Source: Pilaira anomala
Lineage: Eukaryota > Mucoromycota > Mucoromycetes > Mucorales > Mucoraceae
Assembly: GCA_025716855.1 (NCBI GenBank)
Contig: JAIXMQ010000072.1
Span: 1 to 64,000 of the forward strand
DNA length: 64,000 nucleotides
Direction of reading: 5' to 3'
Of the stretch, positions 1 through 6,019 are shown one piece after another. The notes under the pieces are model-generated. The model was given only the letters and a program-made list of their open reading frames with translations. It did no database searches and was not told where the DNA came from. Positions within the stretch are counted from its first letter, which is position 1; each line of letters starts with the position of its first letter. The position numbers and the translations under genes are program-made.

Positions 1-467
1 AAGTGCGCCTTGGTGATTGGCGGGTTCAAAAAATCGACCAATTACTCGGCAATAGAATCAGATAGAGTAAAGTTTGGCAAGCAAATACGAATAACTTACC
101 ATGATCTTGTTTTCCATCGAGTTCAAAATCACGCTGTTTGTGGCATCATCTGTCAAGAAGATTATATACTCACCTACTATATGGATACGAAATCTCCTAA
201 GCTATATCGGATGGTCAAGGTCTCAAAGGTGAAATTGTTCAGAAATGTGGAAAAACTATATTTCCTCCCGCACATCATTTCCAGTATCGTGCAATTAAAA
301 GTAAGAATGGATTTAATAATAATCAAACAGTGCATCTTGAGCTAACTAAATTTTCTGTGTTATTTAAACAGAACATTGCCTTTGAAACCAGTACGAAAGC
401 AGAATTGTCTATAATTAAAACTGCAGAAAACAATCACCGAAATACACCAATCCCGTCAACAACATGA
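1..467 (+). CDS. C-terminal end of lineage-specific hypothetical protein (5' cut by window edge)
   Basis: Reading frame 1 is open from the first base, so the gene begins outside the window. The visible exon runs to 300. A GTAAGA donor at 301 and an AACAG acceptor ending at 371 join it to a second exon (372-467) that keeps the frame and ends at TGA 465-467. The visible protein is about 130 aa with no recognised named domain. Its last part (KSPKLYRMVKVSKVKL, then VEKLYFLPHI) has the same order of a hydrophobic strand block, a basic stretch and a terminal helix as the C-terminus of the 511-aa protein encoded at 58960-60580. I infer that they belong to one family. Function unknown. Confidence 0.5.
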
Positions 468-563
468 CTTTCTTCTGAAAGCTATTGTCTTTCTCGAAAA
501 AGAAAAAGTACCATCGAATGAACAGTCATAAGTTTACATAGTATAGTAACTCTCCTTCTTCTA

Positions 564-960
564 TTACAATAAAAAACTATATCTGATGTTCAATTTAAGT
601 TGTAGAGGGACTTTATTTGAGCAGTTTTCGAAAAGATTTTTAGAGTGTTCAGTAATGTTTACAAGTTGAGATAGAGGGACTTGGTTACATGCTTCAGTTA
701 TTCTTTGTGCGAGCGTTTCAAACTTCATAAGTTTATTATGCTTAACAATAGCCCAGAATTGCTCAATTGGATTCATTTCTGGATATTATGGAGGGATATG
801 CACGCATTTATAGTCTTTGTTTCTATTCTCTACCATCTAACTTACTTCACTCGATGAATGAATTGGGGCATTATCTATGATAATATAAAGATCTTTCATT
901 TCAGGATATCTGTTCGTCCAAGATGTCGAAAAAATTAAAGAGATGAACAATAATGTTCAA
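564..960 (-). pseudogene. Tc1/mariner (IS630-type, DDE_3) transposase remnant
   Basis: Read on the minus strand, the segment gives YIIIDNAPIHSSSE, which holds the second catalytic aspartate region of DDE_3 transposases (normally IVMDNAPIH). About 25 residues later comes PP-stop-YPEMNPIEQFWAIVK, where the conserved PPYSPxxNPIEqfW motif carries the last acidic residue. Two in-frame stops (one inside the PPYSP motif) and the missing N-terminal DNA-binding half show that it is dead. The C-terminal helix (ITEACNQVPLSQL) is typical of transposases of this kind known from Mucorales. It lies just left of the TIR element at 1009. Confidence 0.85.
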
Positions 961-1008
961 TGTTCCATTTTATTTTCGAGAAATGTACGATTTGAGAGTG
1001 AAGGCACT

Positions 1009-1264
1009 GTACTGTATTTCCACCGTCAGTTGGTCAACCTTATTTTTTTTTTTTTTTTTTTTTTTTTTTGCTATAACAGCATGTTATAGCAAATAGGAGT
1101 ACGAAAATAGCTATAACATGCTATAGCAGGGATTGTTTTTGATTGGCTAGTTTATAGCTGTTCAGTTTGATATTTTAAGAACTATAACCAGTTGTTATAG
1201 ATACTTTTTTTTCATATATTTGCGTGTTATACTGTTGTTATAGCTAAAAAATTTATGGCAGACG
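1009..1264 (+). repeat. Left terminal inverted repeat of the 1.78 kb element
   Basis: Inverse complement of 2536-2787 with few mismatches and a length difference in the homopolymer. It contains a T tract of about 27 nt (from about 1043), short palindromes (GCTATAACAGCATGTTATAGC), and an ATG at 1255 at its inner edge that mirrors the start codon in the right arm. Confidence 0.85.
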
Positions 1265-1447
1265 ACATCAAATTGTTTAAATGATTTCCTTTTAATGCTA
1301 CAACAATGCCTCTCTACGCAATTTATACGCTCAACTATTAAACGATCCTTTGTTGGTTCTTAATGCTTAGAATAAATTTTTTTTCTATTTTTTTTTATTA
1401 ACTATGATAAGGGGAACATATAAATAACCTAATGTCAAAAATTCAAT

Positions 1448-2546
1448 TTAAGATGATGGCTGTCTTGTCCCGGGAGGTGATGATGATGATGATGATGGTG
1501 AAGGCGCTACGACAGGTGTATCCTGTTGGTGTTCAGTTTGTGTAGATTGCTTTTGCTTTTCCTTAGAGCGGTGATAAGCACTTTGAGCACTTTTGTACGA
1601 CTTATACTGTTCAAATCGGCCTAGTATTTTCCACTGTTGGAATTGAGCTTTCCATGGTATGTATCCATTTTTATCTGCAAATTCGAAACCGGATAATGAA
1701 TTCTCTAGATGTCGCTTTTGTGCTATTTCATCAACATACGCAATGACATTATTCAGAATATTTACAGCTGCTTCAATACGTGCGTCAGCAGGTTGGTCTT
1801 GATCTTCAAGGGTTACCTTTGCTTTAGAGCATTCTTATTTTGATTGGGCACATACACTTTTTAATAGATGAATAGAGCTTTCGTTATCATGGATATGATC
1901 ACCAAGTATACTTTTCATTTTGGCATAGAGACAAATTAAGGTTGGGTCATTGCAAAGTTAATAAGCGATGCCTCTTGTTCAATAAAACAGTGGATAAGTG
2001 CAAGTAATGGGTTTAGCGGTGTTTCATTGAGATAAGGTGCAATAGTCTCTGTACTGAAAAACAAACATTAACTGGCTCAGCCAATACTCGATAGATGCTT
2101 TGCGAAAGAGATATTAGAGCCAGGTATTTCAGTTTCAAGTAGATCTCTGGTTGTCGAATTAATTACAATTGCCACAACAATGGGAACTTAGACGTTTATG
2201 TTGTCTAACAACCGAGCGCGAGTAATCTATTAGTCGTTGGTAAAAAGTCATATCTGCCTTATTTTGAATCTCAATTAGAATGCGAGGTAGATCATTAGAG
2301 GAGTTAACTGGCTCGTACACGCGACATCAGACCGCGTAAAATCAATCCATTCAGTTGGAATGGCGACGTATTGATCTTTGGCATTTGGTCCTACACAAAC
2401 GAAAAGAATTAGTATCATGCTAACAGAAATTTTAAGATCATACCAATAACATCTTCATCAACTAACAACAGCTTGCTCATTAAATCAGTTCCAGATAAAT
2501 AATTTCTTGGAAGAGGAAAAGTCTTGAGATTAATGCCGCCTGCCAT
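1448..2546 (-). pseudogene. Decayed spliced gene for PD-(D/E)XK nuclease-like protein
   Basis: The start is ATG at 2546-2544, followed by MAGGINLKTFPLPRN. A canonical intron (2391-2443, GTATGA...TGTAG) joins DEDVIG to PNAKDQYVAIP. After that comes TRSDV (candidate nuclease Asp) and, after a frame change, LIEIQNKADMTFYQRL, resembling the E-x-Q/K strand of the Rpn/PDDEXK_2 type. PIVVAIVINSTTRDLL is the next predicted strand. A further frame gives NETPLNPLLALIHCFIEQ and NDPTLICLYAKM, then a tail (GFEFADKNGYIPWKAQFQQW) and a Ser-rich end at TAA 1448-1450. Frameshifts occur near 2310, 2170 and 1950, with a stop near 1835. The PD-(D/E)XK assignment is by motif only. Confidence 0.6.
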
Positions 2547-2787
2547 AAATTTTTTAGTTATAACAACAGTATAACACGCAAATATATGAAAAAAAAGTAT
2601 CTATAACAACTGGTTATAGTTCTTAAAATATCAAACTGAACAGCTATAAACTAGCCAATCAAAAACAATCCCTGCTATAGCATGTTATAGCTATTTTCGT
2701 ACTCTTATTTGCTAAACAACATGTTACAGTAAAAAAAAAAAAAAAAAAAAAAATAAGGTTGACCAATTGACGGCGGAAATACAGTAC
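2536..2787 (-). repeat. Right terminal inverted repeat of the 1.78 kb element
   Basis: Inverse copy of 1009-1264. Read outward-in on the minus strand it runs GTACTGTATTTCCGCCG, a T tract of about 22 nt, then the palindrome block, and ends in ATGGCAGGCGGC. That ATG is the start codon of the element's gene, so the repeat carries the whole presumed promoter and 5' leader. Confidence 0.85.
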
Positions 2788-3207
2788 TTTAAAAACGTTT
2801 CTTTTTGCTGATATAGTTTGGAGACTAGTGTAACTTTATTTACAAAGAGGTAGCTCTAAGAATTAATTGCGATATGGGGAAGCCAAGGGTTTGGTTCGCA
2901 TCCAGTGTCATCAGTTTTTACATATATGCATGCGTTTTTATATCTCTTTTAAAAAAACCCCCAAGTAAGACTGATCTATTCCCACTCACTCTGTTTCCAG
3001 ATTGACTATCATCTAATTTCATAAGATTAGTAACAATAATAAAATAAGTTTGCGAACATTTAGTACCATCTAATTGAGTATAAATATCTACTATTAGTAT
3101 AAGGAATAGTAAAATATAGCTTTTGTGACCAAAGTATCAAATAGTTTTATAAACTTATTCAAGATATAATTTCAAAAAACAAATAATAAAAATTGCATTT
3201 ATTTCAT
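2788..3207. other. Gene-free stretch
   Basis: AT-rich DNA between the TIR element and the desaturase exon. I see no coding frame, RNA gene or repeat in it. Confidence 0.6.
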
Positions 3208-3389
3208 TTAATTATTATAAAAGACAACATCACCTTCGTCCTCAACAAAGCGACAATATTTCATATTTTTCCATAAAGCAAGAATTGTAGGCGTATCATC
3301 ACTCAAATAATACTTTCCAAGTGTTTTCTTCAAATGAACAGTAGCTTCTTCACAGTTATAATGAGGCATCCTTGAGAAAAAGTGATGAG
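3208..3389 (-). pseudogene. Orphan last exon of delta-12 (omega-6) fatty-acid desaturase
   Basis: The segment encodes [20 protein letters not shown], then [17 protein letters not shown] and [15 protein letters not shown] followed by TAA. This is the C-terminus of membrane delta-12/omega-6 desaturases (family pattern H-V-x-H-H-x-F-S-x-M-P-H-Y, then EEAT, then CRFVEDxGDVVF), with the third histidine box HxxHH split by the exon border. A normal acceptor (TTTATGTAG, ending at 3390) precedes it, so it keeps a true exon boundary. Upstream on the minus strand there are only about 100 bp before the F-box pseudogene, and the rest of the desaturase is absent. It is best read as a truncated gene relic. 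Confidence 0.8.
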
Positions 3390-3489
3390 CTACATAAAGA
3401 AAAGGTAATGATAGATTTATGAGCTTCAGGTTAATATTATTATTTATTGAAAAAAAAAAGATTAAAATATCCAATCAAACCGATGTGAG

Positions 3490-5172
3490 CTAAACTTCGA
3501 GCACACTAGTTACAAGTTTAGACAGATTTCGACAGGTAATATCAAGGCGGAAATAATATTGATAAGGCTCATAATTATTATAATTATTTTTACTTATTAT
3601 TAACATACCTGCCTTATTACCTTCATAAAAGCTCGCTCCTTTGTCTGTATCCAGTCTAATAAAGGCTTTAAAATTGCTGTTCTCAGCAGATGGAGGATAA
3701 TTTGTTGATATTAATAAATAGAGCCAGGTGTTCGGCATAAAAACAGTTTCCGTACGATAAAACATTCTATCACTGTAGAATAATGAAAGCTTTCTAATAT
3801 TTGGAGCGTGCAATGACATATATTTGAGAAAATGAATAGAGTTTGGTGTATCTCGAATGTTAAAAACTTTCAATTTTTTTAATCCCTTATGTCGAAACAC
3901 AAGATTGCTTGACTGAATTCCATAAGCAGAGACAGCCACTGTAAGCTTCTTCAATGAGGGACATAATTGAAGCATTCCAAAAACCCAATCTATACCAATA
4001 AGTTCAGTGAAAAAAACAGAATCTGCATCAGCCATAGATCTAATATCTGCAACATCCCGTAATTTAAGGGATCGAATCATACTTCCTGCATCAGAGAAAA
4101 AATCAATATAGGGCAATTCAACCATTTCGTCATATAACCAAAATTGTAATATTGACAGAGTATCGTCCGCTGTGTCGCAACGTTGATCATCATCAATTAA
4201 TTCAATAGTTACATCTCTACGTATATCATCCATATTTATAAATTCAATCCAAATCACAGCTAAATCTTGTGTTGCTATTGATATTTCTATATCATAGTCT
4301 GGTATTGTATTTACATAACGCAAAAATTCTATTATAGCATTGGAAGGACAGTTTGCTGTTATAATTGTACCATCATTTTCATCAAATCCAGACAATATAC
4401 CAAAGCTTTGAAGATTGGGAAACTTTTGCATAAAATACTTTAATTGGATTTCATCGTCTATCAGTTTCCAGTCATATGAATATCTAGATGAGGATTAATT
4501 TTTGCAACTGGTTTTGTCATGATTATTAGTTCCTTCTTCGTAGATTGTAAGTAAAAACATATGCTTTTTGAATGCAGACAAGATCCTATTGTTGCGTCAT
4601 AATCACTCAAGCGTTTAGTGGCTTTTTCAAGATAGATACGGAGGCTATGTAAATTTTTAAATTCGCTTATTTGGCTGATTAGCGTTTTGTATGCTTCTGA
4701 GTAAGCATAGTCACCCGCATCATCTAAAACCATTAAATTTTTCAAAGTTGATTTAAAAACAAGGCGAGACAGATATAACTTTCCATACTCTCACTGCCTT
4801 CGGCTATTGGCAGAATTCGTAAGCGAGATAGTTGACCTTGAGCCAAAACGATAAATTTAGAACGTAACTTTTTATTTCCAATATATTTGGGCAAAGTCGT
4901 ATATGTACACTTATCAATTTATGATCACCCCTAAACTGTTTGTTCCTTTTACTCAGAAAGATACCTGGTATCGATAACTTCGAGGAAGCTGTCTAATCGT
5001 AAGGAATTCGATATTGTCTGACCAAATTGACGGTATTTATTTTTACTTTGGAATATAAATGCTTTAACGAAGCTTCATGCCATTCTTTACTTGTAAGTTG
5101 ACATTGCAGCAAGCCTTTTCTTTCTAAATAGTTGAAGGTAAGTGTTAGGACTTCTAAAGGTAATGATAACAT
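3490..5172 (-). pseudogene. Decayed F-box/LRR-type gene
   Basis: ATG at 5172 opens MLSLPLEVLTLTFNYLERKG, then LLQCQLTSKEWHEASLKHLY. This is a clear N-terminal F-box (LPxEVL...L...C..VcK.W...a...LY) of the kind expanded in Mucorales. The rest is leucine-rich-repeat-like text spread over three frames, e.g. FKNLHSLRIYLEKATKRLSD at about 4.65 kb and LQLCPSLKKLTVAVSAYG at about 3.95 kb. Frame breaks lie near 5030, 4920, 4745 and 4460, and no plausible introns restore the frame. F-box proteins recruit substrates to SCF ubiquitin ligases; this copy should be non-functional. Confidence 0.75.
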
Positions 5173-6019
5173 TCTGTTGAAATAGCATCTTCGTTTATAT
5201 GTTTTTTTTAAAAAAAAACATTAGTAGAGTAATGAGTGAAACTGACTATAGATGTTTGACTTTTTTTTAGGCCAATTAAGGGTGCTCATAAACCTCCGTT
5301 CTATCACTGGGTGACTTTTTTTGTTTTTCATTAATATCTAAACTAGCCAGGTATCTAACTTGCAAGATTTGAAAGAAAAAAAAATCTTTTACTGGATATG
5401 CTCGCAAGTCTTATTGTTCTTGATTTCATTGATTTTTTTGAGAAGCCGGTGAAAAAGATACTTTGGCGGGTGAAGGGATCATGGCCAATTCTTTCCTTTG
5501 GTACCAATATGGAATCTATTTCTGATAAAACATGACAAACTTTAAGGTCACCAAATCTCTCTATTTTTTTTTGTCTTGCTTTCTCGACATTCTTAGACCA
5601 TAGCTACTATTACATTGTATACTTGATTCCACAACTCTTAAAATTTAAAAACTAAGTTAAGATCTGATTTCAAGTCAATTGTTCCCTGAAAATCCAATAA
5701 GATTGGAAATATGTATTGACGAAATGTTTATATTTCTAAACGCGTACAAAGGAAAATTTACTTATATAGTAAAAAAACTTCTTTATAAAACACGTATCAC
5801 TTTATTTTTGGGGGGTGGAACGGAATTTGTATAAATAGGACGCGCTTTTTTGGTTTTACAAAATAGAAAAAAAAAATATTTTTTGTAATTCATTGTGCTC
5901 AAAAAACATATGTTGTGTTGTATTTGTTGGATGACGACAACCTTTTAAGAGCAGAAACAGAGGGAAAAAAAAAAAAAGATAATTTCCTTTTCATACAGAT
6001 AAAATTATTACCACATATT
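5173..6019. other. Intergenic, presumed promoter of the CDK gene
   Basis: No coding frame seen. AT-rich with several A/T homopolymers; a TATA-like motif lies at 5829-5836. Confidence 0.5.
5829..5836 (+). promoter_or_regulatory. Candidate TATA box of the CDK gene
   Basis: GTATAAAT about 190 bp before the chosen start codon (6020), directly upstream of a poly-A-rich leader. Position and sequence fit a TATA element; there is no other support. Confidence 0.3.

What the first reader, a model, noticed from the sequence alone, without database searches (positions are those of the whole stretch)
1009..2787. TIR element whose only gene is a PD-(D/E)XK-like protein
A compact 1.78-kb unit with about 250-bp terminal inverted repeats, a possible TA target duplication, and one spliced gene. 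The gene product shows TRSDV and LIEIQNKAD blocks compatible with a PD-(D/E)XK fold of the Rpn/PDDEXK_2 kind, and nothing resembling a DDE transposase. Either it is a non-autonomous element that captured a host gene, or the nuclease-like protein drives its movement, which would be an uncommon type of eukaryotic DNA transposon.
Basis: partly seen in the sequence, partly recalled or inferred. Interest (0 to 1): 0.75.

Follow-up and report, generated by a model that had tools for sequence, protein, structure and literature searches.

The report
Decayed mobile-element-like nuclease gene unit
In a dung fungus, a broken gene for a DNA-cutting type of protein sits alone between mirror-image ends that match a common family of jumping genes, which makes it most likely a hitch-hiking gene rather than a new kind of jumping gene.

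Summary
The unit is real: 1.78 kb, arms of 263 and 258 bp, TA on both sides, one gene. The protein is PD-(D/E)XK-like: D..ExQ is conserved in most relatives, and two AlphaFold models resemble EndoMS at middling Z. The window gene is broken (three frame breaks, three stops). The genome shows one full unit, one partial copy and one 70-bp end, all abutting the same kind of Tc1-like end, so no independent insertion is shown. The outer 26 bp belong to a TA-flanked end family, some members of which carry IS630/Tc1 DDE genes. Best reading: a decayed non-autonomous Tc1/IS630-type element with a nuclease-family gene as cargo. Two facts keep a bolder reading open: the arms carry palindromes, one exact form of which occurs in the genome only in these units; and the two copies diverged with dN/dS 0.37 while no close donor copy was found. 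Whether the nuclease binds its arms is untested.

The parts
1010..1011 (.). left TA (putative target duplication)
   Evidence: TA precedes 22 of 26 ends found with a pattern that did not include the TA
1012..1271 (+). left terminal inverted repeat: family end, poly-T, palindromes, inverted copy of promoter region and start codon
1070..1090 (.). palindrome GCTATAACA-N3-TGTTATAGC
1110..1127 (.). second palindrome, imperfect here; the C171 copy has the perfect 9-base-arm form
1182..1200 (.). third palindrome CTATAAC-N5-GTTATAG
2601..2619 (.). mirror of the third palindrome, in the right arm
2674..2691 (.). mirror of the second palindrome, imperfect, in the right arm (the mirror of the first is degraded)
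1448..2390 (-). second exon of the PD-(D/E)XK-like gene, with three frame breaks and three stops relative to P0001
2264..2266 (-). codon for Q of the E-x-Q motif
2270..2272 (-). codon for E of the E-x-Q motif
2326..2328 (-). codon for D of TRSDV
2391..2443 (-). intron, GT-AG with TACTAAT
2444..2546 (-). first exon (MAGGINLKTF...)
2530..2784 (-). right terminal inverted repeat, contains the promoter region and first codons
2785..2786 (.). right TA
1..1009 (-). flank: remnant of a separate Tc1-like element, transposase-like C-terminal frame at 564-785, its end (CAGTG.. read inward) abutting the TA
   Evidence: the transposase motif is recalled, Pfam did not call this fragment

Best explanation
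The unit is the decayed remnant of a non-autonomous DNA element of the IS630/Tc1-mariner kind. Its outer ends would be recognised in trans by a DDE transposase encoded by other elements of the same end family, cut at the TA and pasted into another TA. Its only gene is a passenger: a member of a family seen in Mucorales, with an N-terminal PD-(D/E)XK-like domain and a C-terminal W..G.F..Y..S..Y.R segment. The long arms probably arose by an inverted copy of the promoter region and start codon. The TATAAC palindromes are most simply operator sites of that promoter, doubled with it. Shown: the arms, the TA, the end family and its DDE-bearing members, the active-site pattern, the broken frame, past selection on the protein. 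Inferred: mobilisation in trans, the capture, the role of the palindromes.
For: The right end matches 24 of 26 bases of the end at C124, and the left end 22; there the end and its TTGGTCAC repeats run on into a transposase-like fragment (tblastn E 4e-14). C168 (21 and 19 of 26) has the same layout with a related fragment, which passes the DDE_3 cut-off. More distant ends (18 and 19 of 26) stand in pairs around open DDE_3 frames at C11, C45, C72 and C62. The relaxed end motif gives 93 hits against 9 for the reversed control. The only frames of 60 aa or more wholly inside the unit are those of the nuclease gene. Active site; fold. dN/dS 0.37 over 253 codons, P 3e-4.
Against: No independent insertion or empty site of the unit was found. 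All three unit ends sit beside the same kind of Tc1-like end. Inside the first 33 or so bases the arms match no other family member in the genome search and lack the repeated TTGGTCAC. Only one end was found at C124, its DDE part is a fragment, and Pfam did not recognise it or the short fragment at C1:866 kb. The list was capped (150 of 296 candidates scored).
Confidence: 0.66

Rival explanations
1. The PD-(D/E)XK-like protein is the element's own mobility or maintenance protein: it binds the palindromes in both arms as a dimer and cuts, alone or together with a borrowed DDE transposase.
For: Palindromes in the arms: three in the left and two in the right with at most one mismatch, and 7 and 6 TATAAC/GTTATA hexamers against at most 2 in any 260 bp of the window outside the unit. 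The exact 9-base-arm form occurs in the genome only in the two units. The protein was under selection before decay. No other close copy. Other paralogues of the family lie about 130 and 175 bases inside family ends at C150 and at C197 and C4.
Against: The outer ends are those of a family with DDE members. 34 of 40 family loci have no such end within 3 kb, and no exact TATAAC-N(0-6)-GTTATA pair was found in the 10 other nuclease loci scanned. One full copy only. The right arm is the gene's promoter region, so the palindromes may be operators.
Confidence: 0.13
2. Not a mobile unit: an ordinary decaying nuclease gene whose 5' region was copied in inverted orientation, caught in a patch of Tc1-like elements whose ends happen to lie just outside it.
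For: All three unit ends adjoin a Tc1-like end. Five of nine nuclease loci fetched have long inverted arms (L069/L070 and L076/L077 are near-identical pairs, and L071). No empty site.
Against: Both ends carry the same 26-bp family end, outermost on both arms and directly beside a TA, with none in 100 shuffles of the window. The C171 copy keeps the same left end.
Confidence: 0.18

Closest known systems
Non-autonomous IS630/Tc1-mariner elements
   Same: TA at both ends, inverted ends shared with DDE-bearing relatives, no transposase frame inside
   Different: arms of about 260 bp, palindromes of its own, and a full-length nuclease-family gene as cargo
TET/JBP-carrying fungal DNA transposons (PMC12730594; abstract and passages seen)
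   Same: fungal DNA transposons that took up a gene for a DNA-acting enzyme
   Different: a dioxygenase, carried by several other transposon lineages; Tc1 and mariner do not occur in the text. Here the enzyme gene is the only gene
ISL2EU transposons with a second, YqaJ-domain ORF (PMC4482050; passages seen)
   Same: a nuclease-class protein encoded by a cut-and-paste element
   Different: most autonomous candidates there also encode a DDE transposase; this unit does not
Bacterial Rpn (YhgA-like) nucleases (PMC5350276; abstract and outline seen)
   Same: PD-(D/E)XK core; weak profile likeness
   Different: far below the family cut-off; here eukaryotic, with an intron, between inverted arms

Membership tests
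IS630/Tc1-mariner element (non-autonomous) | TA target duplication | tested here: inconclusive
   TA on both sides, but the left flank is another element and no empty site was found
IS630/Tc1-mariner element (non-autonomous) | terminal repeats shared with DDE-bearing members | tested here: met
   24 of 26 (right end) and 22 of 26 (left end) with C124, 21 and 19 with C168, both running into transposase-like fragments; 18-19 of 26 with paired ends around open DDE_3 frames
IS630/Tc1-mariner element (non-autonomous) | several copies at independent sites | tested here: not met
   one full copy, one partial (positions 1-1248 of 1779), one 70-bp end, all with the same kind of neighbour
autonomous IS630/Tc1-mariner element | DDE transposase gene inside | tested here: not met
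   only the nuclease gene's frames of 60 aa or more lie wholly inside
PD-(D/E)XK superfamily | core fold | tested here: inconclusive
PD-(D/E)XK superfamily | D ... E-x-K/Q residues | tested here: met
   D64, E82, Q84 in P0001. Of 13 relatives that I chose to scan, 12 have E-x-Q after an SD; P0015 has K-x-Q and no SD. Among those not scanned, P0010 and P0011 lack the segment, P0014 reads E-x-L, and P0003 has lost the D
PD-(D/E)XK superfamily | nuclease activity | not testable with these tools
   needs protein
Rpn family (TIGR01784) | score over the curated cut-off | tested here: not met
   15.1 against 52.1 bits for P0001
DUF2887 (PF11103) | score over the gathering cut-off | tested here: not met
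   22.6 against 24.1 bits for P0001
ISL2EU | DDE plus YqaJ ORFs | tested here: not met
   no DDE frame; no YqaJ match in Pfam for the read-through or P0001

The most novel reading that the evidence does not exclude
A eukaryotic TIR element whose single PD-(D/E)XK-like protein binds palindromes peculiar to its own arms and takes part in its excision or copying, with outer ends that also let it use a Tc1/IS630 transposase; the same end family has taken up several different nuclease paralogues.
Probability: 0.13. Interest if true: 0.85.

Novelty: new variant of a known kind. Interest (0 to 1): 0.42.

Why it matters
On the ordinary reading, it records a nuclease gene family that repeatedly lies beside or inside Tc1/IS630-type ends in a Mucorales genome. 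On the bold reading, a non-DDE nuclease would be serving a eukaryotic TIR element, which would be rare. Either way the palindromes give a direct and cheap binding test.

Tried and rejected
Rejected: that the open 484-aa DDE frame at C4 owns the CTGTATTTCC end there. It looked so at first, but comparison with C113 and C197 shows a separate nested element with its own end CTGTTTTTTGAATATG; C197 is its empty site with one TA. Rejected: clean second nuclease units at C203 and C1:1297531; there the nuclease fragment lies between or beside Tc1-like pieces, at C1 with another gene in between. Rejected: L076/L077 and L069/L070 as transposon copies; the pairs are 99.8% identical over nearly all that was fetched, so no element borders show.

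Enrichment test: 4 of 38 other nuclease loci lie within 3 kb of a family end, 0.37 expected, P 6e-4; within 1.5 kb, 2 of 38, 0.20 expected, P 0.02. It used all 54 listed matches, merged to 40 loci, and 51 of the 52 ends with two mismatches or fewer (the one on C158 was left out by oversight; one search has no nuclease match on C158). It assumes even placement, which fails in repeat-rich genomes. Reading the four places gave no clean unit, so I give it little weight. C150 was found only with an HMM and is not in that count.

Led nowhere: relatives in viral contigs (none); sequence search of solved structures (none); Foldseek on PDB (nothing at E 0.001 or less). The DNA around homologues in other Mucorales could not be read with these tools. 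P0025, from an unnamed source, reads past the stop and matches the unit's 3' region in translation to about window 1261, ten bases into the arm; suggestive only. Terms for PD-(D/E)XK found no occurrence anywhere and probably cannot match the bracketed spelling. 'Transposons to toxins' (NAR 2016) and 'Cut-and-paste transposons in fungi' (GBE 2017) are not held and are recalled only; in PMC6416283 only a term search was run, without a hit.

Full report
What is there. Window 1009-2787 is bounded by inverted arms of 263 and 258 bp (246 of 263 aligned columns identical) with TA at 1010-1011 and 2785-2786. The 26-bp end occurs in none of 100 shuffles of the window. Between the arms one minus-strand gene runs from the ATG at 2546, through a 53-bp intron, to a stop at 1448. 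The right arm contains the promoter region and first codons, so the left arm holds an inverted copy of them.

Which organism. A homologue labelled Pilaira anomala lies on a contig of 825,559 bases, the length of C171, and another, P0023, on one of 128,330, the length of C196, which holds the window. The genome is therefore P. anomala, inferred from lengths and labels; that it is a dung fungus of the Mucorales is recalled.

State of the gene. Against the intact 359-aa Mucor circinelloides protein P0001 (77% identical to the read-through), the second exon of the window copy shows three frame breaks and three stops. The C171 copy shows one frame break and two stops and lacks the N-terminal part. 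Over 253 shared codons the copies differ by about 26 silent and 36 replacement changes; dN/dS is 0.37, P 3e-4 against equal rates. The protein was thus under constraint for part of the time since the copies split.

Copies. The genome search found one full unit, a copy of positions 1-1248 of 1779 at C171, and a 70-bp end at C68. Each abuts the right end of a Tc1-like element (CAGTGTCTCC read inward) at the same TA. At C171 this neighbour is a short form also present at C214 and C151; at C68 and in the window it is a longer chimeric form shared with C161. The junction thus occurs with two forms of neighbour, by separate insertions or by recombination; neither is proved. The right flank of the window unit matches C171:165570 only from 101 bases out, so that is not an empty site.

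The ends. A search with an end pattern that leaves out the TA gave 26 hits against 2 for the reversed control, and TA stands before 22 of the 26. The exceptions are both ends of the C160 element, which read TC, and two hits that look like chance. A relaxed pattern gave 93 hits against 9. Some relaxed ends, 18 or 19 of 26 bases like the window's, form pairs around open DDE_3 frames (C11, C45, C72, C62). Closer ones, C124 (24 and 22 of 26 to the right and left window ends) and C168 (21 and 19), run through TTGGTCAC repeats into related transposase C-termini, with no other end seen in between. Pfam missed the C124 fragment; its identification rests on tblastn. At C197 and C4 a family end is followed about 175 bases inside by a nuclease fragment, the C4 copy being split by a nested DDE element whose empty site is C197. 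At C150 another nuclease paralogue starts about 130 bases inside a family end, with no partner end found in the 5 kb read.

The palindromes. The arms hold 7 and 6 TATAAC/GTTATA hexamers; no 260 bases of the window outside the unit hold more than 2. The left arm has three palindromes and the right arm two, with at most one mismatch; the mirror of the first is degraded in the right arm. The exact form GCTATAACA-N(2-4)-TGTTATAGC occurs in the genome only at C196:1070 and C171:176027, once in each unit; looser forms were not sought genome-wide. Two-fold symmetric repeats are what a dimeric binding protein would use, but the same sites could be operators of the duplicated promoter.

Judgement. A decayed passenger of an IS630/Tc1-type element is the best-supported reading. 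A nuclease-served element is not excluded and has a direct test. I saw no paper on such a unit in the listings; some searches were probably blind to the bracketed spelling of PD-(D/E)XK, so this is weak evidence of novelty.

Noticed in passing
window 1-1009: Remnant of a Tc1-like element, a chimeric form shared with C68 and C161, ending exactly at the unit's TA.
   Followed up: yes
L084 from 255, L088 from 323, L089 to 1768; empty site in L082 near 270: An open 484-aa DDE_3 element with end CTGTTTTTTGAATATG, matches in opposite orientations at C4 and at C113, with a clean TA empty site at C197.
   Followed up: partly
L066 251-2188 and L028: A 645-aa frame, DIRS-gag-like by recall (no Pfam hit), begins shortly inside family ends at two places, 98.9% identical over 649 bases; possible insertion preference.
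   Followed up: no
L069/L070, L071, L076/L077, L019 with L078: Nuclease-family genes here lie as inverted pairs or inverted duplications, L071 with a tandem-repeat core between its two copies.
   Followed up: partly
P0013 (Mucor saturninus): The annotated protein joins a Harbinger-like transposase part (recalled motif) to the start of this nuclease, which hints at insertion into another transposon.
   Followed up: no
window 3208-5220 minus strand: Broken F-box/LRR-like gene pieces to the right of the unit (recalled resemblance); window 2889-3395 is duplicated at C171:165570 at 94% identity.
   Followed up: no
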